A stretch of 64,000 bases of DNA from contig NC_134515.1 in the NCBI RefSeq assembly GCF_027942865.1, positions 11,895,339 to 11,959,338 on the forward strand, given 5' to 3'. Position 1 is the first letter of the stretch. Each line of letters opens with the position of its first letter. The stretch is from Odontesthes bonariensis (taxonomy: Eukaryota > Chordata > Actinopteri > Atheriniformes > Atherinopsidae). The notes under the pieces are model-generated. The model was given only the letters and a program-made list of their open reading frames with translations, was not told the origin of the DNA and did no database searches. A program made the position numbers and the translations under genes. Below are positions 22,397-64,000 of the stretch, one piece after another.

Positions 22397-25300
22397 ATGG
22401 ACGAGACAAGGTCAGCCGTTTATCTTCCACGTTTATCAATTTCGTCATGACAACCGGCCGTTTGCGTCGCGAGAAAATGTAACTGCACTGTTCAGAGATG
22501 TGATGGATCTCGTTCCGCTTGTTGGCAAGTTATAACCAGTCAACACCCGTAAGATACACAACAAGTGAATGAAATGTGAAGCATCAGGGTGGCTTCATTT
22601 AAAGTCTGGAGAAGAATTACGAGTGAATTATGGTCGGCATGCTGGTGAATTTCTCACTTTCTCTTTCATTTTAAAGCACCAACTGTGGCAGACTAAACCT
22701 GAAACAGGTTGTCTCCTGTGGAGCTTTAACGTGATTATTGCAGGTCACGGGAATGGGAAACAAGTTGTATAAATTAGGTCAAAGATAAAGCATGAATAAG
22801 TACACCAAAAAGCTTGTGTCATTTCACAATCCCCGAATGTTGAAATTAGGGAAGTCCAGGGTGTGTCTGTCGTCATTCGCTGTTCATTAAGAGGGAGTGT
22901 TACAGGACAGTGTTGCCAAAGTGGACTTTTTGTCTAATGCAGCTGGTTTACATGGTGGACAATGCATACATTTGTTACCATCTATTGAAGGCAGCGATGA
23001 TAACGCTAGTAGAGCTGCAAATACAATGTAATTATTGTCTATTAAAGACATTTATTTAAAAAACCCACCTTGCACTAACATAGAAAATATGATAGCAACA
23101 TTTCTATCTGTCAAATTTGTCATTACTGTCATTACAACTGTTTTAGTCTCTTTTTCCAGATGAATCACTTTTTAAGTATGCATACGGGGAGGTGTAGTGT
23201 TTAACCATAACTGCACAAAAGTACAAAAAAGAAGAATGACATGAATACACTGAGAAAAGTCCTCCAAACAAAGTGATGTTTTTTTCTAAAGTATCTAACA
23301 TCTGTCTACGTTTACAGCGTCAACGTCAAAGTTGTCATGTGTGCGATATCGACAGGATGTAAGCCTGTAATTTGAACATTTTCGAATATCAGTTATTGTT
23401 GATTTGTATGTTCTCTATAAATAGTCCTTTTAACCCACGATATCCTGATTCAACATGTGCATTTCAAGCCTGGAGCAGAGCGCTATGCATCAACAAGACA
23501 CACAATAGTATAAGAGACTATTAAACATGAGTACCAAGTTGGTCATTTACATTCAAACCAGATATTTCTGTTTGATTTATTTTTTTTCCCCATGTTTTTT
23601 TTTTTGTTTCCTTAGTGGCTGAATGAAAAAAAAGGTTTTAGTTGATAGCATTAAGTTTAAATTAAGTTTTAATTTAATTTAATTAAGGCTCTTTTTAAGC
23701 AGAGCTTTAGTTCGTAATAGGTTAGGCCTGTGATAAGACATGTCAGGACTTAAACTGTGGATTTCACTTGGAAGATGCACTTGAATATTACAGAGCTAGT
23801 CCAAATGTGTGCTGTGATAAAACTCTACCGTGTCTTCTCACGCGTTTCCCACTTTCAGCTGCGCCGTTGCATCGGTCACTTCGAGGGAATTGGTATTGAA
23901 GTTTCACAGCATTTATTGAACTGAAACACGGAGCATACAGAGCACCACAAGGTGGCAGTATTCCCATCTTGACCTGCAATGTCAAATTACTGTATTACAA
24001 CACTCCCACTTAATTTTACAATAAGCTTAAGTCTTACTTTCTTTTATCAACATAAATCACTTAGGAGATGTATTATACTTAGACTCTTCTCTTTGACTAT
24101 AAGTCCCCTTTTTAACTAAAAAACTTAGAAAAACTAGCAAGACAATTTTAATTCCCCTTCTCCTTTCTATCTTGCTTACAGTTGTCTTAACTTAGGCTTT
24201 ATCAATACTAAACATTGGCCTACAACTTATACTTATCAGAGTTACACAGCACAAAGTCCAATCTCTCTCCTAAGATACTCAAACTTCTGCTTTGCTAATG
24301 GCTTGGTCAAGATATCTGCCTTCATATCATCTGTAGGACAGTATTGCAGTTGAATTTGTCCATTCTGCACACATTCACGAATGTAGTGATAACGAATGTC
24401 TATGTGCTTTGTTCTTGAATGATCAACTGGATTCTTAGCTATGGCAATAGCTCCTTGGTTGTCTTCTAGAATCACAGTTGGTGTAACATCCATTCCGAGA
24501 TCACTGAGTAGTCGTGTAAGCCAGGTACATTCTTGTGCTGCCTGGCTGAGAGCGACGTATTCAGCTTCAGCTGTTGACAGTGCGACGGTGTTCTGTTTCT
24601 TGCTGAGCCAGCTCACTGCTCCTCCACTCAGTAAGAAGACATTCCCGGTTGTAGAACGACGATCATCCTGATCTCCTGCCCAGTCAGCGTCTGAGAAACC
24701 AACTAAAGTTCCAGACTCTGACCGCTGGTACTTGAGAGCGAGGTTTGTGGTACCTTTCAGGTAGCGAAGTATCCTCTTCACAGCAGTCATGTGTGCAGTG
24801 TTTGGATCTGCGTTGAACTTTGACACAGCACTCACTGCTTGTGCGATGTCTGGCCTGGTGGCCATTGCTGCATATAGCAGGCTACCTACAATTGACTGGT
24901 AGGTACCTGGATTCACTGGCTTACTGACACCATCATTTTTCTGTAACTTCACATTTGCATCAGCTGGGGTTGTGACTGGATTGGCTTTATCCATCCCATA
25001 TTTCTGAAGAATGGCTTCAATGTAATGCTTCTGGTGAAGGTACACACAGTTTTTGATCTTGTCTTGAATTACTGAGATGCCCAGTATGTAAGACAGCTCA
25101 CCCATGTCTTTCATCTTGTATCTCTTCTTCAGAGCAACTTTCAACTCACTCATGCTCTCCAGTGACTCTGTGATCAAAATCAGATCATCAACATAAACAG
25201 CTAATATCTCTAGCTCCTGTCGAGCTCTCACAAACACACAGGGGTCTGATGTGCTCTGGTTGAATCCAAGATCTTTCATGAACTCTGTGAAAGTCTTACT

Positions 25301-28300
25301 CCAGCAGCGAGGTGATTGCTTAAGGCCGTAGATTGACTTCTTCAGCTTGCACACCAAGTGCTCTTGGCCTAGTTTCACGTATCCGTCTGGTTGTTCCATG
25401 TAGATTTCCTCCTCTAGATGTCCATTAAGAAATGCAGTGACGACATCCATCTGGTGTACATGCATGTTATTCTGAACGGCAAAGGACAGCAATGTACGGA
25501 TTGAGCTGAATCGTACTACAGGTGAGAAAGTTTCATCATAGTCAGCGCCATACTTCTGTGAGTAACCCTTAGCAACAAGTCTGCACTTGTATCTCTCCAC
25601 TTCTCCATCACTATGGTGCTTGACTTTGAACACCCATCTTGAACCTATTGGCTTTCTGTCTTTTGGCAATTCCACCAAGTCCCAAGTTTCATTTTCAAGC
25701 AGGGACTCATACTCCAAATCAGCCGCTTCCTTCCATTCCTTTGCATTAGAACTCATCATTGCTTCCTTCAGTGTAGTTGGTTCATTTACACTACAGACAC
25801 TGGCATAATGTTCAACCGTCACTATGTCTGCAAACTCATCATAGCCATACCTTTTTGGGGGGTTTCTGACTCTGCCGCATTCTCTCGGAGCTTTGTTGAC
25901 TGGTGTCTCATCAGCTGATGCTCCTCTCTCATCAGGACCACTGCCAGTATCACTGTCTGAACAAGACACTTCCACTTCCTGTTTCCAGTCAAAGTCTGTT
26001 TCATTGAAGATGACGTCCCGGCGAATCAGAATCCTCCTTTTCTCCTCATCGAACAGACGATAGCCCTTGGCATTGTTGGCATATCCCACGAAGCGAAGCT
26101 TCACCGCTTTCTTGTCCAGCTTTCTTCTCTCTACTTCTGGAACATGTGCATATGCCACACAGCCAAAAACTCTCATGTGACTGATGTTCGGCTTTCTGCC
26201 ACACCATCTCTGGTACGGGGTCTCTTGCTTTAGAAGTGATGTGGGCAACCTGTTCTGCACATAGGCTGCTGTTGCTACAGCCTCTGCCCAAAACATTTTT
26301 GGCAGCTTTGCATGAGACAGCATACTCCTTGCTGCTTCAACTAAAGTCCGATTTTTTCTTTCAGCTACACCATTTTGCTGTGGTGTATGGGGTACAGACA
26401 TTTCATGGTGGATGCCTTGAGCCTTCAGGTATTCTTGAAATTCTTTCGACGTGTATTCCCCACCGTTGTCTGTTCTCAGTCTTGTAACTCTTTGTCTACA
26501 CTCATTGGAGAATGTTTTCTCAAACTCTTTGAACTTGCTGAGCACTTCACTTTTTTGCCTCATGAAGTATACCTTGCAACATCTTGAGTAGTCATCAATG
26601 AATGTCACAAAGTACTTTGATCCACTTATGGATTCAGTCTGCATGGGACCACAGACATCACTATGAATCAGCTGCAGTTTGCGCTTTGAGCGGATTTCTC
26701 CCACTGACTTGAATGGCTTTCTAGACAGCTTGCCCTCCACACACGCTTCACAGAAGGAGATCTCTTTTTCTGCAGAAAAGTCCATTCCACTCACCAGAAG
26801 TTTAAGCTCCTTCAGCATGGTGGTGTGGCCCAGTCTTTGATGCCATAGGCTGGCTGCAACTGATGCACTTCCTGCTGTATGAGAGACAGGCGTACTCCCC
26901 TCCACGTCCAGCTGATATAATCCATCAGATCGTTGTGTTCCCATTCCTCGAAGATCTCCATCTTTTCCACGTATGTAGCACTGGGTCTTCTTGAACTGCA
27001 CTGTGTTCCCTTTTTTCACAGCAGCTCCCACTGAGAAAAGATTCCCTGACAGCTTGGGAACATACAGTACATCATACATTGTGACATCTTTGACGTCACT
27101 AACTTTAAAAGTCATTTTCAGTTTTACATTACAGAGTCCTTGTGCATCAACCACTCTGCCATCGCCCAGTTTCACTGATTGTGGCTTAGTGAATTCCTGG
27201 TAATCCTGAAGTATTTCTTTTGAACATGTCATGTGTTTTGATGCTCCAGAGTCGATCAGCCATTCGACCTGCTTCACTTTCTCATTCTGATTATTCTCTC
27301 TGGCAACAAATGCACTTTCAGTTGCAGTATCAGAATTTGCATTATCCTCACATGTCATTTGTTTAGCCTTGTGGGTTTGATTTTTATTTTTAAACTTTGG
27401 ACAATTTCGTTTTAGATGTCCTTCCTTCCCACATTTAAAACACTTCCATTTGGATCTGTCAATTCCCTCAGGCTGTGGATCCCCACGCACTTGAGTTGCC
27501 ATTGCAGAGGCGCCACCTGCTGTTGCACCACTGGTACTGTCATTTGCCTGCACTCGTTTTTGTTCCTCATTTACCAATGACTGCTTTACGAATTGAAGAG
27601 TCAAACTGTCCATCTTTGTCTCTAGGGCAGTGACAATTGTTGCATAGCTGGGTGGAAGACTACCCAGTAATGTCACAATCTGATCCTCCTCCTCAATGAC
27701 AGCACCGATAGCACCAAGTTGATCAGTTAATTCCTTCATGCGCTTCAAATGCTCGGTTATCGTTTCTCCTTCCTTCATTTCACATCTGAAGTACTTCTTC
27801 TTTAGAAACAACTTATTAGCTAGGGTGTCTCTCTCAAAATGTCCCTTAAGCGTATCCCACGCTTCTTTAGGTGACTGGCAACTTGTAATCAGGTACAGTT
27901 GAGATGCACTTACATTAAGCACCAACATTGAAAACGCTTTTTCTTTCTTCCTAGCGAATTCGGCTCGAGCAGCTGCGCTAGCATCTCCTGCTAATGTTTC
28001 TGTCTCCATTACCATGCCCCATAGACTTCGAGCTTTCAGCAGATGCTCCGTCTGGAATTTCCACGTAGCCCAGTTGTCTGGTCCACTTAGCTTGTCGATA
28101 AACAGTCTGTCCTCCATTGTGAATCCCACAATACCGAGTACTCCACACAAGATCTGTGTAAAACCACTGTTTAAAGCTAATTTACTGGAACTGACTGGGA
28201 CCGACTGGGCCCATGACCTATTGAAGTTTCACAGCATTTATTGAACTGAAACACGGAGCATACAGAGCACCACAAGGTGGCAGTATTCCCATCTTGACCT

Positions 28301-31300
28301 GCAATGTCAAATTACTGTATTACAACAATTGGAGCTTCAGTTCTGAAATGAAGTCATGTGGGCTAACTCATGCTTTCACTACAGTATCTGTTTATCAGGG
28401 AGATGAGCAATCACCGGCATTCTTAATGTGATCCAGCACTTTTTAGGGGCATACCAGAGCTAAAGAGCTCTGCCTAATTAGCAGCCAAAATTTGTTTTCC
28501 TTTACAGAAACGCTGACCCATTCCTAATATGTTTACTTTTTCAGTCCTTTGCTGGGTAACCAGCAGCAACAGAACCCAGATCTTCTCTCGCCAAACCTGA
28601 GGCCGAGACATCAGGATCTGATCCCCACACCATGTGGACCGGTGAGATCCTCTGCCTTTCATCCTTTTTAATCATTCACCCTGTGACACGAGGAGTGAAA
28701 TCCATGCCTTTCAGCCCCACTGTGGCCATATTTTCCTGCTTCTTGTGCTGTTTTCAGTTATGAAATTGTACTAAGATTGTACATACTGTGGTTTCAAAGA
28801 ACATTTGTCCTCGTCCCAGGTAGTTTCACTTTCTCGGTCGTCTCCTCTCTCTTGCAGATAAAGTCCTGGTCGGAGCTGTCGTGCCTGCTGAAGCTCTATT
28901 TCTGCTTCACCATCGCGTCTCTGTTGGCGCTGCTCGGCCTCACCCTGTACAGCATCTACAAGCAGCACGTGGACTCAGATATTTCTGATGAGGACAACTT
29001 CACCGTCTCTCTCATCCAGCTGGTTGGAATATGTGAGTAGCATCACTGTCAGCTGAGAGAGGAAGCAGACGTTTTCCTGCTGTGATCATGTGATGAAAAC
29101 TGCATTGGTGGATAAACGGTTCCCAAGGTGCTTGTGTCCGATTGGTGATCGATTCCCCTCGCAGATGCCTGTACATATTTATTTTAAACGGTTCGGTTTC
29201 TGTGTTTCAACTTCTGAGTCTCTCAAAATCCACTGTACATATTTCAGGGAAATGAGGACGTAAAAAGAAAAAAGATAATAATTAGAAAAAAAAAACATGT
29301 AACAACACAAGCAGCCTTTCAGATGACTTTCACATGACTCTTTTCAAAAGCCAAGTCTGCCCAAAAGTGAACTTGGAGCTCCAAACCTTTTTACTGATTT
29401 TATATAGGTAGAATATGTTATGAATGAAAAAATCATCTGAAACAGTTTGTTACTCTTATCTTACACATAAGTGTTTATCACATAAATCAGAGTAGTAAAT
29501 GTGTCTGCAACCCAAATGGAGTTCTTCCTTAATTACTGTGACAGCTACAGAAACGGCAGAGTTCAATTTAGATGCACACATCAGCCACAAGAAGAAACCA
29601 CTGCCTAATTTTGTGTTCTGTCGTGCTGATAAAACAGCTCTGACAGACCGTAAAAGACCCCTGAAAGTGTTCTGCTGTCGTTGATTTTTTTTAGTCATGA
29701 AAGTTGGTGGCTGATAACACCTGGCAACGTTTTTTTTTTTTTTTTTGTGAAACAAGTAGAAAAATCGCAGATATGAAACAAAACTATTTAATTTAACATC
29801 TGAACATTCTAGCTTTTTAAATAGACGGCACAAAAAAATGTAATAGCTTTGTCAGTTTTTTTTAAAGATGAAAACATTGTGGGTTAGGTTAGGGATTGAT
29901 TTGCATTTTTCAAACAAATACCTGTAGACGTTTAGATAAGCAGATGAGTCTGCAGTTGAAAGAGAGTGCTTGTAGAGCTTGTTGCACCTGGCGAATGGGC
30001 AGGAAACATGACTCCATCAAGAGAGAGAACAATGGAAAGGACAGTGAAACTCCTTGGAGAAAATATATACACTAGGTGTGTGGAAAAAAAACGTTACCAG
30101 ATTCTTTTAGTCTGAAAAGTGTAATGTCCATTCGTAAAATCCTTAAATCCATTTCTAATAAATGTCGTTTCCGGCATCATCTGTGCTACATCCACTGTGC
30201 AGTCTCGCAAGCCATGTGACTTCATGTGACTCGTGTCGCAACGTTGAAGAACGAGATTCATGGTCAAAGTGTGGAAGAACCTGTCCAAGCAGCAACCGAC
30301 ACTCACCGTCACGCCCGAAGGCAAACGTGTGGCAGCATTTTGATTTTTGAAAGTGTGCCGTCTGAGAGGAGCTTCACAAGGGCAGAGCAACGTTTTTTAA
30401 TCATGTGCCTGACTAAAAGTGTAATTTATTCCGTCATTTATTTTGTGAAAACCTCTTTTATAGCAAAGCCAAAATTATACGGAAACTGAATTATTTGAAT
30501 GTTATTTGAAATCGGATTGAATCGATTGAATTTCTACAATTATTGATGATGTGGGCTTGATGTCAGGTAAAGGATTAGGGGGGAGGTGGGAGTCATTATC
30601 GCTACTGTAAATGCACAGGTGGACACTTTTCTCATTCGTTCTGGTGATGCTGAGGTCATTTTTCAGGATGATAATTCATCTGGACACGGAGAAGGAGCGT
30701 TCAAGCTTCCTCCACTAAAAACACATCAACTCAGTGGCATGACCAGAAAACTGTTTGGATCTCAATCTGATTGGAAATTTACGGTAGAAATTGGAAAGAA
30801 AAAAAAAAAGGCCCAAGACAAAGCTCCATCCTGCAAAACTGATCATTTTAAACTGAATGAACATCCTCCGTGAGTGGTGATTATATAACTTCTGCGAGTT
30901 TCACTTCCCCCAAATGCCCAGTTGGAATGAGCTCTGGGGAATTTGGAAGCAGTAGTCACCACGTCGACCTCCTTCATGTTCCTAAAGCACCCCCAGCGTT
31001 TGATGCGTGCATTATCCCCGGTTTAGAGACGCTCTCGCAGTCATGAAAGCATCACAGTCTGGTTCTTGTCAAATTCACTCAGGTCCTCGCGTTAGCTCAT
31101 TGTTTCCTACTCTCTGCCCAGGATGCTGTATGAGCTGTAGTTTAAATAAAGAAATCCAGACTATGGTGGCTAATTATTTAAGCTTCTACTCTGTGTTTTA
31201 TTTCAACATCACAAAAACATTTCCGACTCTAAATTGCGTGGAGTGTTGTTTGTCTCGTTTGTCTCTGTGTGGCCCTGCGATGGACTGACCTGTCCAGCTT

Positions 31301-34300
31301 TGCACGATCTTGTTCCCCGCAGTGTTCTGCATCTACTACATCAGTCGTGGCGTGCTGCAGGAGAACAGACAGGAGCTGGTGGCGTTCGTGCTCAGCGTGT
31401 TGGTGGTCATGATCCGATCTGTGGTCAACTTCTCCGTGGTGGACTCAAAGGGCAAGCAGGAGCTGCTGTTAAAGGTTATACAGTCCTTTGAAGACGTTTA
31501 TCTGATTATTTTGTGACGTTTGTCTATTTATTTGGTCCCAAAACAGGGATCCAGATATTTTTTATTACATCAACACTATCCCTCTGTATACAAAATGTCT
31601 ATTTCTGTGCTAAAAATACATCTAGTTTATATCCTTTCTATTTATTGTAATATATAAATTCATACGTTTTTAATCCTTGAAAAATGCTTTCAGTCTTCCT
31701 CTTAGGTGCAAACAACCCTGAGCGCTTTTGTAAAGACGACAGGGGCCCTAAAACCCAGATCTAAAACTAAAGATCACACCCTACTCCTAGTAAATCTTAA
31801 TAGCTGTGAGAGTAAATGTAACTGAAGCTGTAACAATGTCATGACATCAAACTGACATCATTAAAAAGGACATGAGCTTTCTTCTTGTTGAAATGAGGTA
31901 TAGTTCCACCACTTGATGTCAGTGTTGTTTTATGTGTCAGCCCCATGTGGTCGTCAACAGGTTTGTCTGTTTCTGGAGGGAAAACTGATAGCTACAAACA
32001 AATCAGTTTGTCTTGGCTCCGAGCTGATGAGGCCAAATCATCTATATTTATCTTTATTTGCTGGTAAATCATGAGAACGTTGACTTTGGCTTGTGCAGAT
32101 GCGGAAAACACCTCAGTTATTAGCAGCACGGTTCTTCCCCTTAGAACATAGTTAAGCTCCTCCAACATGTTGCAGTGTAAAACTATTTACAATATTTTTA
32201 ATTCACAAGTTTTCTTTTGTTTAGCAAAGGAAATAGTCTGAAAATTGCTCGTTTCTTCGTGACACGTCGTTGCTGATGTTTGCTCTGAACAATCCTGGAG
32301 AGCAGCGGTAACGCCGCATGCTTGTCATTTCCAGCAGTCTGTCCGCCATCTTTGCTGCTCCCTGAAAGATCAAGACAACCCTCGAAGGCCTAAAACAGTG
32401 CAGAATTTCAGAAATGGCTCAATGAAAATGAAAATCATAAGCTAAGAAATGCAACAAAAATGAAATAGAAAATAAATGTATGTGAGAATTAATGTATAGA
32501 ATGTGAGATGGATTATTTCTGCTTTCATTCCCAAATTAATTTGTTTAACTTTGTTTTAATACCCCAATGCCTTTTTCAGTGCCATTTTATCGATTTTGCA
32601 TCATGATAATAATAATAGATTATTAATACATTACATTAAAATTTGAATAAAATGCAAGATTTACATATGGAGTACTAGCACAGGGCAAAATGAGCAACAT
32701 CTTTCTCATTGTATTCATTAATCATAGAATACTTTATTTACATTTTTTTTATTTTAGTTGCATTTATTGGCATATTTGTTTTTTTCTATTGAGCCATTCA
32801 CACATTTTAGTTTTTATTTCTAAAATAGTTTGACGAATGAGATTTTTCTATTTTGATTGTGGCATTGATGCTTCCCACAGAATAAATAATAGTGACTTTT
32901 CCTTGAGTTCCCTTTCTTTTATTTTTTTAATGAAAACTCTTTTTTTTCGTCAGATTGGTAATGGTGTCATGGTGTGCATGACACAGATTCGTCAAAAATC
33001 AATGACACAGCAGGAAGAATCTGTACTTTTTGTCACCAGCTTTTTGTGTGAAGACACAGCAAAGAAAGAGACATCAAATGTTCCTGTGTAACGTCTACGT
33101 GCTTTCATTTCCATTAACGGCATTCCTGCAGCCTCAGGCTTAAATTCCTCCACGTTCCTTCAACACTAGAGTTTATGTCCCCCGTGTTTGTGTTGCAGGT
33201 TCGTTTTGTGTGCATAATGTGTCTAGGTGTCGTGCACATGTTTTGCACCTTCCTTCTCATCCAGAGACCCAACATGATGGCGTTCCGTGTGGGCGGGGCC
33301 TTGGAGAGCGTGCAAGAGCAGTACTTCCTCCTCAACCTCTGTTTCTCCATGGTGACCTTTGACCTGCAGACTCAGGTACGTCTGCCATGCGGGGTCCACA
33401 GTGGAGACACCAGTAGTGACACCCTTAGGTTTGTTTATTTCCCAGTGCTGGTCCAAACATTTGGACGTAAAAACTGGCCTGCGGGTCAAGTGTGCACTCT
33501 GTTGGAACCGTGTACAACAATTCTCTTTATAAACTAAACCCTGCACGGCTCATAGGTGAATTTGTTGTAGAGACGTAATAAACACACCATTAAAAGCCTC
33601 AAAATATGTCAACAGACGTTGTAGGATTTGTGTCCTATGTGTGGAACATTTAAAAAGGCTGCAAACTTCCAAGATTTTGGTGTGGATGTTCGCTAAAACT
33701 GACCAAACGTTTTTACTCAAGAACGTGTCTGAAACAGGACCGAGGTTGCTAACTGAGGCCGAAATGATAAGGTCATAAGTTTCCTATAACATAACAGATG
33801 AATAAGCTGATGATTTTAATGTTGTGTATTTCGCGTTTGTCATGACATAGAACACAAAAGTAAATGTAAATGTAAAAGTCTGGAGTATTTAAACATGTCT
33901 CATTAGATTTATTTTTAAGAGCCAACACCAGGTTTGATCTCTTCTGTTTTACAGTTTCACAGAGCAGAGGGAGAAATGATCACGATCGTATTGTTCTCAT
34001 GAATTTAAACTTGAATGTTGGCAAACAAATCCTCTGCATCTGTGGGTCATCCTGTTTTTTCTCTGAGCTCTCCAGCAGTAAAATCCAACCTGATGGTTAT
34101 TTTCAGTCCAGGTCTTCTTTCTTATTTCCTTTCACAGTCTTTTTTTTGTAGTTTTTGCTTTATTCTTTATGTTTTTATTTGTTTGCGGTTGCAATACGTG
34201 TCACACTGGGAATAAAAACAAAGTACTGAAGTGCAGTTTCTCCACCTTTGGGTGCTGCAGGGCAGACTCAAGTCCAGGAATGTGCGTACACAAAGGTTGG

Positions 34301-37300
34301 AACACAGATTCAAAACGTCTCTAGTGTTGCTTTGACTTTGCAATGTTCATATCAGCCTCAGGAGATCAAGGTAAGACGTGTAGACGTGATACATGTGATA
34401 CGCTGCATTGGTTGGAAACTATTTAAAAAAAAAAACAAACTGGTCTTTCTGGTCTTGTCAGATGTCATTTTGCACAATAAAAGCGACTAAACCCATGTTG
34501 CTGCTTTCAGTGAGATGTGACGCATCTGTTGTTGTGAGAGCTTGTCTGTGTGCATTCTTCTGCGTCTCGTTCCTCTACGTTTTTGGGACAGAATGTCCCA
34601 TGAGTGACCTGGGTGTTGGGATTAAGCGGAGAATGATATGTGCTTGTTGCAAGAGACCTGGCTTCAGTAATGATGCGTTGTGGTGTGAACTTTTTCAGTT
34701 GTGTCTGTGTATCCTGATCACAACGTTGGACTCGGCCATGTCTGCTGCCAACAGAATAATCCTGGGTGTCGGTGTGGTCTGGGCCTGCCTGACCGCCGCT
34801 GTAGGGGCCGTTGCGGTGAGTGCTGTTTATCCTCCTCATTGTCAGGTCGCATCAAGAGACAAAAAACAGATGAACGGTGAAATATTTTATGATAATCAGC
34901 CACTATAATAAAACTCCTGACATTGTGAAGTGAGAAACATTGATCTTCCAGTTGCATTACAAAGTTGGCCTTCATGTGGCCAATTCACCCACCTAAACAC
35001 TTGTACAAACCAAGCATCACCATTGCACCACCTAACAGCAGCAGGACCGTGCACCACCCCAGATTCCAATCAAATCGATCATACGCATGATGCACCTCAA
35101 CAAGTTGACCCCAAAGTATCAACTGTCCCACAGGAAACCCCCTGAGATCCTTTGCCTATTTGTCAATGTGTCACAGCTGTTTTTTAGCCACAAGATAGGT
35201 CAACAGAATATAAGGCAGGTAGTTTTAATGTTTGGCTGATTGGTATATTGGCAGCAGTTGTGGTGAATTCAAATGCTGTGTTGTTTTTTCAGGTTTTAAA
35301 GGAAGCCAAGATCTTGGTTTGGGTCTTCATGGTGCAGAACCTTCCTCAACTGGCCTACTTTTTGTATTTGATGTACATGGTAAGTCCGCATAGACTTTTC
35401 TTGGACTCCAACAGGACTTTATGAAGTGAACTGATTTTCCCAGAGAAAATTGTGCATCTCAAGTCTTTTCCTCAAAGCATCAACATAGTTTGTTTACTGA
35501 GGCTATAAGGCCTTAAAAACATGTCATACTTGCACTTGCACTAAAAATGCTTGGTGACTTCCTTGAATTTCTGGGTGCTGCAGTTTTTAGCAAATATTTC
35601 TCAAGCAGCAGTAAAAGATGACTTTGATAGGACACAGTTTCAGCCAAGCTTTCGCTGTCAGATGGCCTCACATTTGAACCTGGAATACTTTGGTGTACAG
35701 AGGAGTTCATGGTGGACTCAATGACTGCAAGATGTTCATGTCCTGTGGCAAAACAAGCCAAATTATCAGCCCTCCACCACCGTGCTTAACAGTTGGTATG
35801 AGGTTGTCAAGTTGCCAAGTTCTCCACTGAGCAAATTCCACAACTTGAAAGGGACTAATTCTCAACCCGAGGGGAACTGGATTCCACTCAAAGACTTTTT
35901 CTTTTATCCCTCTTTTTTTCAGATTCAGACAGAGATTTATATTTATATATATACACACATACATACATGAAAACACACACATATATACACATATATATAC
36001 ACACATACATACATACATACATGAAAACACACACATATATACACATATATATACACACATACATACATACATACATGAAAACACACACATATATACACAT
36101 ATATATACACACATACATACATACATACATGAAAACACACACATATATACACACATACATACATGAAAACACGCACATATATACACACATACATACATGA
36201 AAACACGCACATATATACACACATACATACACACATACATGAAAACACGCACATATATACACATATATATATACACACATACATACATGAAAACACGCAC
36301 ATATATACACATATACATACATACATACATACATGAAAACACACACATATATACACATATATATATACACACATACATGAAAACACGCACATATATACAC
36401 ATATACATACATACATACATGAAAACACACACATATATACACATATATATACACACATACACACATACATACATGAAAACACGCACATATATACACACAT
36501 ACATACATACATACATGAAAACACGCACATATATACACATATATATACACACATACATGAAAACACACACATATATACACATATATATACACACATACAC
36601 ACATACATACATGAAAACACGCACATATATACACACATACATACATACATACATGAAAACACGCACATATATACACACATACATACATACATACATGAAA
36701 ACACACACATATATACACATATATATACACACATACATGAAAACACGCACATATATACACACATACATACATACATACATGAAAACACGCACATATATAC
36801 ACATATATATACACACATACATGAAAACACGCACATATATACACATATATATACACATATACATACACACATACATGAAAACACACACATATATACACAT
36901 ATATATACACACATACATACATGAAAACACACACATATATACACATATATATACACACATACATACATACATACATGAAAACACACACATATATACACAT
37001 ATATATACACACATACATACATACATACATGAAAACACACACATATATACACATATATATACACACATACATACATACATACATGAAAACACACACATAT
37101 ATACACATATATATACACACATACATACATACATACATGAAAACACGCACATATATACACATATACATACATACATGAAAACACACACATATATACACAT
37201 ATATATATACACACATACATGAAAACACGCACATATATACACATATACATACATACATACATGAAAACACACACATATATACACATATATATACACACAT

Positions 37301-39995
37301 ACACACATACATACATGAAAACACGCACATATATACACACATACATACATACATACATGAAAACACGCACATATATATACACATATATATACACACATAC
37401 ATGAAAACACACACATATATACACATATATATACACACATACATACATACATACATGAAAACACACACATATATACACATATATATACACACATACACAC
37501 ATACATACATGAAAACACGCACATATATACACACATACATACATACATACATGAAAACACGCACATATATACACACATACATACATACATACATGAAAAC
37601 ACGCACATATATACACATATATATACACACATACATGAAAACACGCACATATATACACATATATATACACATATACATACACACATACATGAAAACACAC
37701 ACATATATACACATATATATACACACATACATACATGAAAACACACACATATATACACATATATATACACACATACATACATACATACATGAAAACACAC
37801 ACATATATACACATATATATACACACATACATACATACATACATGAAAACACACACATATATACACATATATATACACACATACATACATACATACATGA
37901 AAACACACACATATATACACACATACATACATGAAAACACGCACATATATACACACATACATACATGAAAACACGCACATATATACACACATACATACAC
38001 ACATACATGAAAACACGCACATATATACACATATATATATACACACATACATACATGAAAACACGCACATATATACACATATACATACATACATACATAC
38101 ATGAAAACACACACATATATACACATATATATATACACACATACATGAAAACACGCACATATATACACATATACATACATACATACATGAAAACACACAC
38201 ATATATACACACATACATACATGAAAACACGCACATATATACACATATACATACATACATACATACATACATGAAAACACACACATATATACACATATAT
38301 ATATACACACATACATACATGAAAACACGCACATATATACACACATACATACATACATACATGAAAACACGCACATATATACACATATATATACACACAT
38401 ACATACATACATACATGAAAACACACACATATATACACATATATATACACACATACATACATACATACATGAAAACACGCACATATATACACATATATAT
38501 ACACACATACATACATACATACATGAAAACACGCACATATATACACATATATATACACACATACATACATACATACATGAAAACACGCACATATATACAC
38601 ATATATATACACACATACATACATACATACATGAAAACACGCACATATATACACACATACATACACACATACATGAAAACACACACATATATACACATAT
38701 ATATACACACATACATACATACATACATGAAAACACACACATATATACACATATATATACACACATACACACATACATACATGAAAATACGCACATATAT
38801 ACACACATACATACATACATACATGAAAACACGCACATATATACACATATATATACACACATACATGAAAACACGCACATATATACACATATACATACAT
38901 ACATACATACATGAAAACACACATATATACACATATATATACACATATACATACACACATACATGAAAACACACACATATATACACATATATATACACAC
39001 ATACACACATACATACATGAAAACACGCACATATATACACACATACATACATACATACATGAAAACACGCACATATATACACACATACATACACACATAC
39101 ATGAAAACACGCACATATATACACACATACATACACACATACATGAAAACACACACATATATACACACATACATACATACATACATGAAAACACGCACAT
39201 ATATACACACATACATACATACATACATGAAAACACGCACATATATACACACATACATACATGAAAACACACACACACATATATACACAGGTACATGTCT
39301 TGCCTCAGAACCCCTAGGTAGGTAGGTAGGTATCTTTCATGCAGGGGATTTGTTCCCTGGTCCCCCAGATGAAAGGGGGCAATCTTACCACTACACTATC
39401 CAGTCATAAATACATGAAAACACACATTTATATATACATAAATGTGTGTTGTTTCGGAAGCAGAGGATGGGCTGCCTTTTTCACAAGACTCTACCTCAAA
39501 GTACTTAAAGCTCAGCAGTTTATTAAAAGCCCTTCACACCTTCACATCTTTTCATCATGTTCATTTATTCGTTCAAACCACAGCTTACACAGCACAAAGA
39601 TTCATTGTGATATGAGAACCCCATTTCACGGTGATGCTCACTAATCCAGACAAGCTGTGCATGGAGACGGGGATTCCTGCTGGAAAACACATATTCTTTG
39701 TCATTACAGGTGGTGGAAAAATGGTTCCATGACAACACGTACACGCTGGAGGCAGCTGCTGTCACCGGAGCTTTGATTTCACTGCTGATCAAAGTGGTTT
39801 TGTTCTGGGGCCTCATCAGGCTGGTGCACAACTTTGGACAAGGCCTGAGAGAGCGAAGTGAGTTCACTGTGTGGTACATCACCTGGAGAAAATTTTGACT
39901 AGAAAGCATGAGCACACCAAAATATTTCCGTCACAACCTGACCTTTATTTTGTTTTCTGATTATATTTGCTTTAGTGTTTGCATCCAGCAGGTGA
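22397..39995 (+). CDS. Unrecognised multi-pass membrane protein, 328 aa, nine exons
   Basis: Exons: 22397-22410, 28545-28641, 28858-29032, 31323-31474, 33199-33375, 34699-34815, 35293-35379, 39710-39857 and 39976-39995. They sum to 987 nt with every splice phase matching. The start at 22,397 (GGGAAATGG, strong Kozak) fits because exon 1 ends in phase 2 and joins exon 2 in frame. A cytosol-like N-terminal tail (about 45 aa, Pro/Gln-rich) begins MDETSPLLG, an acidic dileucine [DE]xxxL[LI] pattern used for endolysosomal sorting. Seven to eight hydrophobic helices follow, for example LYFCFTIASLLALLGLTLYS, LVAFVLSVLVVMIRSVV, FVCIMCLGVVHMFCTFLLI, LGVGVVWACLTAAVGAVA and ALISLLIKVVLFWGLIRLV. I do not recognise the family; function is unknown. 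Intron 1 contains a copia element and intron 7 a 3.35-kb minisatellite. The model is very likely real; exon 1 is the least certain part. Confidence 0.85.
23894..24002 (-). repeat. 3' LTR of the copia element (109 bp)
   Basis: Read on the minus strand it begins TGTTGTAATACAG and ends CTTCAATA. It contains AATAAA (TTTATT at 23,912-23,917), a likely poly(A) signal, and the CTCF-core-like CCACAAGGTGGCAG at 23,945-23,958 (plus strand). It is identical to the other LTR. Confidence 0.95.
24003..24241 (-). other. 3' untranslated region and polypurine tract of the copia element
   Basis: A non-coding, T-rich (plus strand) spacer between the gag-pol stop and the 3' LTR. The bases next to the LTR read AAGTGGGAG on the minus strand and are the probable second-strand primer. 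Confidence 0.7.
24242..28117 (-). CDS. Copia gag-pol polyprotein, intact, 1,291 aa
   Basis: A single frame from ATG at 28,117 to TAA at 24,242. The open frame continues upstream only to a TTG at 28,150; the ATG gives the usual MEDRLFIDKLSG start. Order of domains: Gag (UBN2-like) about 1-200; CCHC zinc knuckle CFKCGKEGHLKRNC at 226-239; aspartic protease LIDSGAS (D289); integrase with HHCC (H426, H431, C456, C459) and D487, D550 and E586 in HSDVCGP, DNGGEY and GVAERKN; reverse transcriptase with QMDVVTAFLNG (D891) and YVDD at 975-978; RNase H with D1143, E1184 and D1219. The order protease-integrase-RT-RNase H defines Ty1/copia. No stop or frameshift, and all expected catalytic residues are present, so the protein is potentially functional. 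There is no frame boundary between gag and pol, so ratio control, if any, does not use frameshifting. Confidence 0.97.
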   Translation of the reverse strand: MEDRLFIDKLSGPDNWATWKFQTEHLLKARSLWGMVMETETLAGDASAAARAEFARKKEKAFSMLVLNVSASQLYLITSCQSPKEAWDTLKGHFERDTLANKLFLKKKYFRCEMKEGETITEHLKRMKELTDQLGAIGAVIEEEDQIVTLLGSLPPSYATIVTALETKMDSLTLQFVKQSLVNEEQKRVQANDSTSGATAGGASAMATQVRGDPQPEGIDRSKWKCFKCGKEGHLKRNCPKFKNKNQTHKAKQMTCEDNANSDTATESAFVARENNQNEKVKQVEWLIDSGASKHMTCSKEILQDYQEFTKPQSVKLGDGRVVDAQGLCNVKLKMTFKVSDVKDVTMYDVLYVPKLSGNLFSVGAAVKKGNTVQFKKTQCYIRGKDGDLRGMGTQRSDGLYQLDVEGSTPVSHTAGSASVAASLWHQRLGHTTMLKELKLLVSGMDFSAEKEISFCEACVEGKLSRKPFKSVGEIRSKRKLQLIHSDVCGPMQTESISGSKYFVTFIDDYSRCCKVYFMRQKSEVLSKFKEFEKTFSNECRQRVTRLRTDNGGEYTSKEFQEYLKAQGIHHEMSVPHTPQQNGVAERKNRTLVEAARSMLSHAKLPKMFWAEAVATAAYVQNRLPTSLLKQETPYQRWCGRKPNISHMRVFGCVAYAHVPEVERRKLDKKAVKLRFVGYANNAKGYRLFDEEKRRILIRRDVIFNETDFDWKQEVEVSCSDSDTGSGPDERGASADETPVNKAPRECGRVRNPPKRYGYDEFADIVTVEHYASVCSVNEPTTLKEAMMSSNAKEWKEAADLEYESLLENETWDLVELPKDRKPIGSRWVFKVKHHSDGEVERYKCRLVAKGYSQKYGADYDETFSPVVRFSSIRTLLSFAVQNNMHVHQMDVVTAFLNGHLEEEIYMEQPDGYVKLGQEHLVCKLKKSIYGLKQSPRCWSKTFTEFMKDLGFNQSTSDPCVFVRARQELEILAVYVDDLILITESLESMSELKVALKKRYKMKDMGELSYILGISVIQDKIKNCVYLHQKHYIEAILQKYGMDKANPVTTPADANVKLQKNDGVSKPVNPGTYQSIVGSLLYAAMATRPDIAQAVSAVSKFNADPNTAHMTAVKRILRYLKGTTNLALKYQRSESGTLVGFSDADWAGDQDDRRSTTGNVFLLSGGAVSWLSKKQNTVALSTAEAEYVALSQAAQECTWLTRLLSDLGMDVTPTVILEDNQGAIAIAKNPVDHSRTKHIDIRYHYIRECVQNGQIQLQYCPTDDMKADILTKPLAKQKFEYLRREIGLCAV
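28205..28218 (-). promoter_or_regulatory. Primer-binding site: internal initiator tRNA-Met match
   Basis: The 14 bases directly adjoining the 5' LTR read CTGGGCCCATGACC on the plus strand. This matches the anticodon-arm region of eukaryotic initiator tRNA-Met (CTGGGCCCATAACC) with one mismatch, so the element RNA would pair with the middle of that tRNA, not its 3' end. Drosophila copia primes in this way from a cleaved half tRNA. Confidence 0.8.
28219..28327 (-). repeat. 5' LTR of the copia element (109 bp)
   Basis: Identical to the 3' LTR at 23,894-24,002. It should act as promoter for the minus-strand element RNA. The CTCF-core-like motif is at 28,270-28,283. Confidence 0.95.
29033..31322 (+). 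other. Intron 3 of the unnamed membrane-protein gene
   Basis: Mostly unremarkable AT-rich sequence. Near the right end (about 31,210-31,300) is a fragment 'ggccctgcgatggactgacctgtccagc', the tail of the tRNA-like teleost repeat. A 98-codon minus frame at 30,094-30,390 is unsupported. Confidence 0.5.
31475..33198 (+). other. Intron 4 of the unnamed membrane-protein gene
   Basis: AT-rich, with no recognisable exon, RNA or repeat family. Confidence 0.5.
33376..34698 (+). other. Intron 5 of the unnamed membrane-protein gene
   Basis: No recognisable exon or repeat. The open frame around 34,408-34,908 overlaps exon 6, and the part before 34,699 is intronic read-through. Confidence 0.5.
35515..35900 (-). 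mobile_element. Tc1-like transposase fragment (intron 7 of the unnamed gene)
   Basis: The plus sequence 'ttcatggtggactcaatgac' through 'ccctccaccaccgtgcttaacag' closely parallels 21,160-21,255 inside the larger Tc1-like copy; the minus strand gives KHGGGGLIIWLVLPQDM. Truncated remnant. Confidence 0.65.
35938..39288. repeat. 3.35-kb minisatellite with higher-order structure
   Basis: About 70 tandem units of roughly 42-58 bp, built from ATGAAAACACRCAC, then ATATATACACATATATATAC-type blocks and (ACAT)n. Two unit types differ by acacac versus acgcac, a CpG variant. Larger blocks repeat: 35,967 to about 36,430 recurs at 37,735 to about 38,200 (offset 1,768 bp), and a block around 36,380-36,990 recurs about 0.81-0.84 kb further right. 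Apart from the TGAAAA interruption, each unit is alternating purine-pyrimidine. It lies wholly within intron 7 of the unnamed gene. The long open frames across it are a by-product of a stop-free repeat. Confidence 0.95.
39330..39403 (-). repeat. tRNA-like SINE head or tRNA pseudogene at the minisatellite edge
   Basis: The minus strand reads TAGTGTAGTGGTAAGATTG (A-box region), a CCCCC...GGGGG anticodon-type stem with a loop near TTTCATCT, then GGGAACAAATCCCC (T-arm/B-box-like). No good acceptor stem is seen, so it is not a functional tRNA. Array-like sequence (atacatgaaaacacacattta) resumes at about 39,411. Confidence 0.55.
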
Positions 39996-42872: not shown

Positions 42873-45800
42873 TCAGAACTCCTCGTCCTCCGAGCCGAAG
42901 TGGTTCTGCTTCTTCCGCACGTTCCAGTGCAAGCACTGGGCCAGGCTCTCGAACCAGTCGTTCACCGGGTCGCGGAAGCAGATGGAGGGAACGGGGAAGC
43001 AGGAAGTGGTGATGGTAATGCTAGAACAAGAGGAGAAAATAATAAAGATCTTATCTCGCAAGGAATGAAAGAAGAATGAGGAAAGTCCAGGCGAGAAGCT
43101 GCTGACATCAGATACAGCGACACCACTTCCCTCTGAAGCAACGCTGGCTTTTCCTTATTGATAACCACTGACAGCTCTTTACAAGAACCAGGAAGGTAAT
43201 TACGCCTGGCTGAATTAGACAAAGGAAGGCGTTGGATCAGACTCAGGGGTTGGAAGGGTACAAAACAAAGCCGGTAAGAGTTCTTTCTAATAATCCATCA
43301 GCAGCGCAGCATGTGGACTAACCTGTCTCCGTGGCAGATCTCTTGTCTCCTCCTTCCATCAAACGACACCCAGGCCGTGTTTCTGGCATCACGTGACAGC
43401 ATTATCTGGGGAACAACAAGGAAACACTGCATGAATATGAGGAAAAAACTTTCCCTCTCAGGGTTTAACTCACGAGGAGTTTTACTCAAACAACTTCTGG
43501 CTAAAATGATGGAACCACCACACTTGGAGGAGGTTTTTTCTAAGTGTGTGGTGGCACTGAGTTGATATGCCCTCGTTATTATCGTATCCTATAAAATGAG
43601 CTTTGAGTGACGTTTGACGTCTTTCTCGCTCAACCTGCATGTTTCCCTTTTAAAAACGCCCCCACTTTGTGTGCACTTGCCCCAAATGTTAGCTACAGCA
43701 CACTGGGAGCAGCCGCCGCTCTCAGGAGTAAACAACCTTTTTTAGATTTCCTTCTGTCATATCCACTGACGGCTCTCTTATTCTCATCATGTTTGCTGCC
43801 GATCAGGCGATCATTAACGTCTGCAAGCAGTCGTTTGCATATTCAGATGATTTTTTTGTGCATGTATTTCTTTCAGAAATGAGGCACTTTTTCCCCTCTA
43901 CTTCCACTGGGAAAACAGAGCAAAATGTTCTAACAATTTTAGTAAAATATTTGAGGCACGTTCAGAACGATCAACTATAACAATTAAATTGTTTTGCGTT
44001 ACAAAGTTATTTATTTCTTTTTTACAAAGCTGAACGAGCATCCTACGAGTGTGGTGAATCCATAACCTTTGCCAGGGGTTGGTAAAATAAAAAATGACAT
44101 AGTATTGGCTGTTTGAGACGACGGGCTGAGGGAAGGAAGAGGTCGCTATGAGCTCCTGCAGGAGACGGATGAACCGAGAAAGGAGACCAAGAAAACCACA
44201 AACAGCATGTTTGGAAGTGCCAGTGAAAACCGGCAGTGTGATTACCTTTAGCTCCACCCCGGCAGGCACCACAATGGGTCTGAAGGACAGCGAGTGTGGG
44301 CAGATGGGGGTGATCATGATGGCCGGCACGTTGGGATGGATCATGGAAGCTCCTGCTGCCACTGCGTAGGCTGTGCTGCCCGTAGGTGTGGACACTATCA
44401 AACCTGAGGAGACGCAGAGTCACGGGCACCGTTTCAGAGACACTCGAGTAGTTTATTCTTTCGTTTTGAACCTCTCAAACACAAAAGCAACGTGCACAAA
44501 TTGCAGAGACGAAGACCTGCTGGAGAGTCTGAACTCTGCTCGCTCCAGAGTTCAGGGACAGCACGTTGTGCTGATGCAACGCCCTGAAGTCCTGCGGCCA
44601 CTCACCGTCTCCCTGCACTGTGGTGATCAGGTGTCCGTCCAGGTAGAGGTCCACGTTGGAAAGATAGGGGGAGGATCCTCTGTCCACCACCACCTCGTTC
44701 AGTACCTGAAGCACACAGAGAGAAAACGAAGTCATGCATCAACTTTGGTCAAAATTGTGCTCTGCCGACATGATGTCACCCCATGATTCAGACTAAAGCA
44801 CCGATCTCGGTCTGCAATCCTCACATCTGCAGTTAGAGCCACGTTTCGCTGACACCATTCCTTTACTCACGCTGTTCCTCAACAACAAGTTCAAATGCCC
44901 AGAGGCACGACAGTGAAGACGGCTGAGTCATGACTATGAACCTAAAGTTATTTTGACCCACTTACAGCCTGAGCTTCAGACTAAACTCATGTCCAGAACA
45001 AAGCTACACCCAGCAGCTCAGATAGTGTGAAAGTTGATGCACATTACCTGATACTGCATGGCTTTGTGGCTGCTTTCAACGTCCCTGTTGGTATGGATGA
45101 TACCCTTTTCATCCATGCCGTCCTTCTTCTCCCAGTTCTCCTTAAACACCTGGACTTTCAAGCGACTTCGCAGGATGATGGCAGCGTTGCCTACAGAATA
45201 CACAGTTTACATATCTAAATTAAACCCGTGCTCTAGAACACTTTCCCTAAGCCGATTAACAGGTCGGAACATTCAGTACCTTCAATGATTTGGGTGACCT
45301 GAGACTGGTAGGAGTCGAAATTGAAAGGTGTCAGAAAGCCCAGGGAACCCAGGTGGAAGGCCATAACTGGTGGAACGCTGTCCTACAACCACATTAAACA
45401 AAGGGAGGGGGAGATTGTTGTGCTGCGGGCGGTAAAAAACACACGGGGGCTCTTTTTTAAAAGTTACGCCGACTTGCTGAATACCTGGAAGAGCGAAGAC
45501 GCGTACAACAAGGTTCCATCTCCACCAAGACAGATGATAAAGTCGATACGATTAGACAGGTCGTCGAGGTCTGAGGAACATAAAGACAGAAAAACACATT
45601 TACACTTTCTTTCTCTTTAAGGGAAGTGCTGTGAGCAGAGGCGTCGCGGTAGGGGTCGTACCTTCTCTGAAAGTGCAGAATTTCTTAGTAATGGCCCCAA
45701 AGTTTTCATCGCCTGAAATAGCCGGGTCGTCCAGAACCTTCTTCTCCACGTAAACCATCATGTTTTTCACCTGCAACAAACACTCTTTACAGACTCCGAC

Positions 45801-58909: not shown

Positions 58910-64000
<5,091 letters not shown>

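What the first reader, a model, noticed from the sequence alone, without database searches (positions are those of the whole stretch)
23889..28332. Intact, apparently very young Ty1/copia element in a fish genome
Seen: identical 109-bp LTRs, 5-bp target duplication ATTGG, one 1,291-codon gag-pol frame without stop or frameshift, and all expected protease, integrase, RT (YVDD) and RNase H residues. Known: copia elements are rare in vertebrates, and GalEa-type elements with very short LTRs are reported from fish and crustaceans. Inference: insertion so recent that no LTR difference has accumulated; the family may still be active.
Basis: partly seen in the sequence, partly recalled or inferred. 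Interest (0 to 1): 0.8.

Follow-up and report, generated by a model that had tools for sequence, protein, structure and literature searches.

The report
Recently inserted fish Copia retrotransposon copy

Summary
Observation confirmed: a minus-strand Ty1/copia element at 23894-28327 with identical 109-bp LTRs, duplication ATTGG and one 1,291-codon gag-pol frame. Two corrections. Clade: the primer site matches the anticodon arm of initiator tRNA-Met ("half-tRNA", Hemivirus type), 13 of 14 bases here and 14 of 14 in five siblings; the site called strictly conserved in metazoan GalEa (PMC5445492) is absent. In the same genome 8 of 11 other copies read have the half-tRNA site and fall with the window's RT; 2 have the tRNA 3'-end site and fall beyond a 100/100 split; 1 shows neither. 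So probably not GalEa; Hydra clade is likely but untested. Age: 0 changes in 109 bp bound it only loosely (under 1.4 My at 1e-8, 3.9 My at 3.5e-9); ten private changes across the element suggest about 0.2-0.6 My. Of six near-full copies two have intact frames and identical LTRs. Copia is not rare here: 121 RVT_2 matches, nine in stop-free frames of at least 1,300 aa. Present activity is unproven. A well-preserved member of a known kind.

The parts
23889..23893 (.). target-site duplication ATTGG, left copy
28328..28332 (.). target-site duplication ATTGG, right copy
28219..28327 (-). 5' LTR (109 bp, coding orientation; ends TG...TA)
   Evidence: identical to the other LTR
23894..24002 (-). 3' LTR (109 bp); AATAAA at LTR positions 86-91 (window 23912-23917), no TATA string
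28205..28218 (-). [quoted passage not shown]
24242..28117 (-). gag-pol frame, 1,291 codons plus stop
27548..28048 (-). Gag capsid region (Retrotran_gag_2; relative of the solved Copia VLP protein)
27401..27442 (-). CCHC zinc knuckle, aa 226-239
27239..27253 (-). protease motif DSGAS, aa 289-293
26381..26683 (-). integrase core (rve), aa 479-579; D550 and, just past the Pfam stretch, E586
24962..25693 (-). reverse transcriptase (RVT_2), aa 809-1052, YVDD at 975
24557..24859 (-). RNase H region, TRPDI (1087) to ALSTAEAEY (1179-1187)
   Evidence: motifs only
24003..24011 (-). polypurine tract AAGTGGGAG directly before the 3' LTR

Best explanation
A complete integrated copy of a low-copy Ty1/copia LTR retrotransposon family of the Hemivirus type (half-tRNA primer site; most likely the Hydra clade of Copia). 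Likely cycle: an RNA runs from one LTR to the other and is translated as one Gag-Pol polyprotein; Gag forms particles; the 5' half of the host's initiator tRNA-Met anneals through its anticodon arm to the site next to the 5' LTR and primes minus-strand DNA; the polypurine tract primes the plus strand; the integrase inserts the product with a 5-bp target duplication. Anatomy, primer match, relatives and duplications are shown. Transcription, particles and priming are inferred from Drosophila copia and yeast Ty5. On the rates used the window copy went in roughly 0.2-0.6 My ago or later.
For: LTR pair, duplication and frame; domains in copia order; Gag piece matches the solved Copia VLP protein, PDB 8vvw, E 6e-19, and the integrase piece a solved integrase, 7z0h, E 3.5e-17, which I recall to be that of Ty1; half-tRNA site 14 of 14 in five siblings (four insertions, since C13a and C13b are one), 13 of 14 here, against initiator tRNA genes in four loci of the same genome; primer type agrees with the deep RT split in the 10 copies whose type could be read; five-bp duplications in 4 of 6 near-full copies: ATTGG, GGAAT, GTTCA, GAGCC (the last two after setting the LTR ends by eye); 10 private changes over an element of 4,434 bp.
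Against: This copy's primer site has one mismatch to the tRNA. No transcript, small-RNA or population data. Clade not tested with named references; the window RT shows YVDD and TRPDI, two of three motifs given for metazoan GalEa. No RT match at E<=0.001 among solved structures. C13a and C13b have no target duplication and share flanks. L034, in the other RT group, showed no primer site.
Confidence: 0.9

Rival explanations
1. It is a GalEa-clade (Zeco1-like) element.
For: Short LTRs; fish carry GalEa elements (PMC3587641, passages); the window RT has YVDD and TRPDI, two of the three motifs listed for metazoan GalEa in PMC5445492 (passages), while the genome's 3'-end group has HVDD (6 of 6 rows) and TRPDA or TRPDV (4 of 4 rows that reach it).
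Against: The primer site stated to be strictly conserved in metazoan GalEa is absent; the site present is half-tRNA. RT is only 26-31% identical to the 3'-end group and separated from it by a 100/100 split, with a long-branch warning. The window Gag matches the Copia VLP protein, while the one Gag of the other group that was tested does not. YVDD and TRPDI are common in Copia at large (recalled).
Confidence: 0.04
2. The insertion is older than it looks: 109-bp LTRs may be identical by chance or gene conversion.
For: 0 of 109 leaves a 95% upper bound of 2.7% divergence, up to 1.4 My at 1e-8 or 3.9 My at 3.5e-9 per site per year.
Against: Only 10 private changes in the whole element when six copies are aligned, and an open frame of 1,291 codons. 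Some of the 10 (5 silent, 3 replacing, 2 outside the frame or at gaps) may even predate the insertion.
Confidence: 0.1
3. Assembly artefact.
For: None found for the window copy. C13a and C13b share flanks, which could be a real duplication or an assembly one.
Against: The 300-base left flank has one match in the genome, itself; clean target duplication; the copy differs from every sibling; it lies in a 40-Mb contig.
Confidence: 0.02

Closest known systems
Drosophila copia (genus Hemivirus, Pseudoviridae)
   Same: Related Gag (8vvw, 'Copia VLP protein', E 6e-19); half-tRNA primer (copia's use of a half-tRNA is stated in PMC5371799, passage); one gag-pol frame in copia order (copia's own layout is recalled).
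   Different: Host; 109-bp LTRs that end TG...TA. Copia's LTR length and ends were not checked here.
Hydra-clade Copia elements of fish (zebrafish Hydra1-2; nototheniid CoNotoB to F)
   Same: The non-GalEa Copia lineage reported from fish (PMC5941688, PMC6387122, passages); its CoNotoB is said not to align reliably with the GalEa family CoNotoA, which resembles the distance seen here.
   Different: Membership not tested: no named Hydra sequence was available. No primer site is given for the Hydra clade in the passages I saw.
GalEa / Zeco1
   Same: Short LTRs (CoRex2 133 bp in PMC3587641, passages); present in fish.
   Different: Metazoan GalEa primes from the tRNA 3' end (TGGTAGCAGAGC); the window family does not, and its RT and Gag are far from the genome's 3'-end-primed elements.
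53%-identical RT lineage of the same genome (L029, L030, L036)
   Same: Half-tRNA primer site; LTRs that end CAATA; one stop-free frame of 1,301 aa in L029.
   Different: LTR repeats of 258-265 bp as aligned, against 109.

Membership tests
Pseudoviridae (Ty1/copia) | Integrase ahead of RT; copia-type Gag, integrase, RVT_2 | tested here: met
Pseudoviridae (Ty1/copia) | LTR pair, primer site for initiator tRNA-Met, polypurine tract (PMC8515867, whole text) | tested here: met
[quoted passage not shown]
   by sequence match only: 13 of 14 here, 14 of 14 in five siblings; the primer molecule was not observed
GalEa clade | Primer site TGGTAGCAGAGC right after the 5' LTR, strictly conserved in metazoans (PMC5445492, passages) | tested here: not met
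GalEa clade | RT groups with GalEa elements | tested here: inconclusive
   outside the group that holds the genome's 3'-end-primed elements, but these are stand-ins; no named GalEa sequence was available
GalEa clade | RT and RNase H motifs KARLVA, YVDD, TRPDI (PMC5445492) | tested here: inconclusive
   window KCRLVA, YVDD, TRPDI; stand-in rows KARLVA (5 of 6), HVDD (6 of 6), TRPDA or TRPDV (4 of 4 that reach it)
Hydra clade | RT groups with Hydra1-1 and Hydra1-2 | not testable with these tools
   no named eukaryotic element sequences held

The most novel reading that the evidence does not exclude
The family has shrunk its LTR to about 109 bp, against repeats of 217-307 bp in the half-tRNA relatives of the same genome. 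The polyadenylation signal ends 18 bases from the LTR end, so U5 would be almost absent and 3'-end formation would lean on flanking host DNA. Each window LTR also carries a CTCF-like core, so the family could spread insulator-like sites. Against it: AATAAA is kept in only 10 of 15 other LTRs and the exact CTCF-like 14-mer in 12 of 15.
Probability: 0.15. Interest if true: 0.45.

Novelty: new member of a known kind. Interest (0 to 1): 0.2.

Why it matters
It corrects a clade guess and shows in one genome, for the copies read, that primer type (half-tRNA against tRNA 3' end) follows the deep split of Copia RT. It also shows why very short LTRs should not be used alone to date insertions. For the host it is one of several Copia families that hold intact, recent-looking copies.

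Tried and rejected
GalEa membership was rejected mainly on the primer site, with the RT split as support. An LTR-only age was set aside as too weak and replaced by private changes. A different primer tRNA was considered for the window's primer site and rejected because five siblings match the initiator tRNA exactly; a genome-wide pattern search for the alternative did not complete and was not repeated. Relatives in viral contigs: RT query, none confirmed of 7 pattern matches; LTR 30-mer, none. The integrase comparison with solved structures did not separate the two Copia groups; the frame of L035 is cut by a stop inside the integrase and only the part after it was searched. An empty site elsewhere in the genome: the 300-base left flank has one match only, itself; the right flank was not searched. 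L034 gave no LTR pair and no primer site. Copies at C7, C21, C19 and C27 are broken fragments and were left out of the six-copy counts. Tree rows dropped: of 33 loci tried, L021 for length and L042, L049, L050, L059 for a stop, leaving 28 plus the window. Rfam and tRNA scans of the window were empty.
Full report
What is there. On the minus strand at 23894-28327 lies a 4,434-bp LTR retrotransposon: LTRs of 109 bp, 109 of 109 identical, flanked by ATTGG on both sides, with one frame of 1,291 codons from ATG 28117 to the stop at 24242. The Gag piece matches the solved Copia VLP protein (8vvw, E 6e-19) and the integrase piece a solved integrase (7z0h, E 3.5e-17), which I recall to be that of Ty1. 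The RT-RNase H piece has no match at E<=0.001.

Primer. Directly after the 5' LTR stands a 14-base site complementary to the anticodon arm of initiator tRNA-Met. The genome search for the initiator tRNA scored 40 of 793 candidates and listed 40 matches. In four of these loci, genes picked out by the first ten bases of the arm show the same arm in all 17 rows printed, some rows being the same gene in overlapping loci (ARAGORN on the same loci). Five sibling copies (C13a, C13b, C14, C24, C19; C13a and C13b are one insertion) match 14 of 14 bases; the window copy matches 13 of 14, its mismatch being private to it. This is the half-tRNA type. [quoted passage not shown]

Probably not GalEa. PMC5445492 (passages) states that metazoan GalEa has the strictly conserved site TGGTAGCAGAGC. 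The window lacks it. Of 11 copies of other lineages read for the site in the same genome, 8 have the half-tRNA site (L029, L030, L036, L031, L032, L033, L062, L063), 2 have a 3'-end site (L035, L061; both TGGTAGCAGAGG, 11 of 12 bases of the GalEa motif) and 1 shows neither (L034). In an RT tree of 29 rows the window family and the half-tRNA lineages lie among 23 rows, split 100/100 from 6 rows (L034, L035, L060, L056, L057, L058) to which the 3'-end-primed elements belong; L061, L062 and L063 are longer stretches around tree rows L058, L052 and L043. Primer sites were not read for the other tree rows. The program warns that long branches meet at this split, so it should be read as two distant groups, not as a rooted history. 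The first frame of L035 has no match to the Copia VLP protein and its Gag part hardly any to the window Gag (best E 0.034), while the Gag-protease stretch of L032 matches the window's at 2e-12. Against this reading: the motif trio given for metazoan GalEa fits the window in two of three (YVDD, TRPDI), while the 3'-end group has HVDD in 6 of 6 rows and TRPDA or TRPDV in the 4 that reach it. I therefore call that group GalEa-like by primer only. Hydra is the other Copia clade reported from fish in the passages I read (PMC5941688, PMC6387122) and is my best guess for the window family, by exclusion.

Family and age. The LTR search gave 19 hits, which I count as 18 LTRs because the two C19 hits are halves of one. 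Each adjoins internal sequence (for C19, on one side), so no solo LTR was found; the tool calls its counts lower bounds. Six copies are near full length: C15 (window), C14, C13a, C13b, C28, C24. Five-bp duplications: ATTGG (C15), GGAAT (C14), GTTCA (C28) and GAGCC (C24), the last two after setting the LTR ends by eye; C13a and C13b share flanks and have none, so they are one insertion duplicated. LTR pairs differ at 0 sites in C15 and C14, 3 in C13a and 5 in C13b; C28 differs at one site and has lost the LTR end next to the primer site; C24's pair shows no substitution in the aligned part. Frames: C15 and C14 intact; C13a has one stop, C13b one frame-breaking insertion, C28 and C24 several breaks. 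Pairwise differences from the window: 27 of 4,433 (C14), 30 of 4,432 (C13a), 33 of 4,432 (C13b), 61 of 4,382 (C28), 81 of 4,101 (C24). Private changes, counted at columns with at most one gap: window 10, C13a 7, C13b 9, C14 14, C28 39, C24 61; the low C13 values reflect their shared history. The window's ten are 5 silent, 3 replacing and 2 outside the frame or at gaps. Dividing by 4,434 sites and 1e-8 per site per year, the rate used for fish LTR elements in PMC11117352 (passage), ten changes give 0.23 My (95% upper 0.41); at 3.5e-9 (recalled as a slow fish rate), 0.64 My (1.19). The LTR pair alone bounds the age only at 1.36 or 3.87 My. So the copy looks young, but the identical LTRs are weak proof.

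Context. The genome has 121 RVT_2 matches, 119 over the curated cut-off; one element can give several matches, so this is not a count of elements. Nine of the 121 lie in stop-free frames of at least 1,300 aa: C15, C14 at 10.7 and 23.1 Mb, C12 three times, C16 twice, C6. The one on C6 (L033) has 267 of 267 identical LTR bases, a better case of recency than the window. Copia is thus neither rare nor singular here. The window's 300-base left flank has one match in the genome, itself. Nearby genes, from 10 of 316 listed open frames: NAD kinase C-terminal domain at 43901-44419 minus; G-beta repeats at 61643-62662 minus (one frame over, one under the family's cut-off); DUF7789 at 33118-33534 plus, with a sub-threshold second match at 34399-34905. 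NADK next to GNB1 is vertebrate synteny as I recall it. A stretch at 28545-28641 plus has an open frame with splice-like borders, so the element may lie antisense in an intron; inference.

LTR anatomy. AATAAA is at LTR positions 86-91, no TATA string is present, and the LTR ends TG...TA. AATAAA is kept in 10 of the 15 full or nearly full LTRs of other copies, and missing from both LTRs of C28. A CTCF-like core occurs in the window only in the two LTRs, 2 matches against 0.01 expected; but I wrote that pattern from a recalled consensus with one position left open after seeing the LTR, so the expectation is no fair test. The exact 14-mer is kept in 12 of the 15 LTRs and in neither LTR of the intact C14 copy; close kinship alone would explain its being kept.

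Literature. Searches for Copia with GalEa, half-tRNA, Hydra clade and teleosts, zebrafish primer sites, short LTRs, Hemivirus and fish and Hydra1-2 or Zeco1 showed no title or abstract start that names a half-tRNA Copia family in fish. I read passages of a few of these papers only, so this is no claim of absence.

Verdict. Real, well preserved, apparently young, of a known kind; clade guess corrected; present activity unproven.

Noticed in passing
window 35951-39262: 3.3-kb AT- and CA-rich minisatellite (periods of 34, 42, 54 and 96 bp, strongly strand-skewed) that creates long open frames in several frames.
   Followed up: no
window 23945-23958 and 28270-28283: CTCF-like core CCACAAGGTGGCAG in both LTRs, the only two matches in the window to a recalled consensus that I had loosened at one position.
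   Followed up: partly
G000 C13 21.4-23.9 Mb (L037-L040): Initiator tRNA-Met genes alternating with tRNA-Arg(CCT) genes; the 40 scored initiator matches (of 793 candidates) are all on C13. One family copy (C13b, 21.76 Mb) lies within the span of these matches.
   Followed up: partly
L017 and L018: C13a and C13b have the same flanks about 7.4 Mb apart and no target duplication: a segmental (or assembly) duplication of one insertion.
   Followed up: partly
G000 C7 2.96-3.52 Mb (L022-L025): Cluster of rearranged fragments of the same family; three of the four loci share nearly the same internal piece, probably spread by local duplication.
   Followed up: no
L031, L044, and G000 C12:1081912, C12:4083860: Another Copia lineage (half-tRNA site read in L031) with four 1,336-aa stop-free frames and near-identical RT scores; perhaps a more recent expansion than the window family.
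   Followed up: partly
window 28545-28641: Possible exon on the plus strand, about 210 bp past the element.
   Followed up: partly
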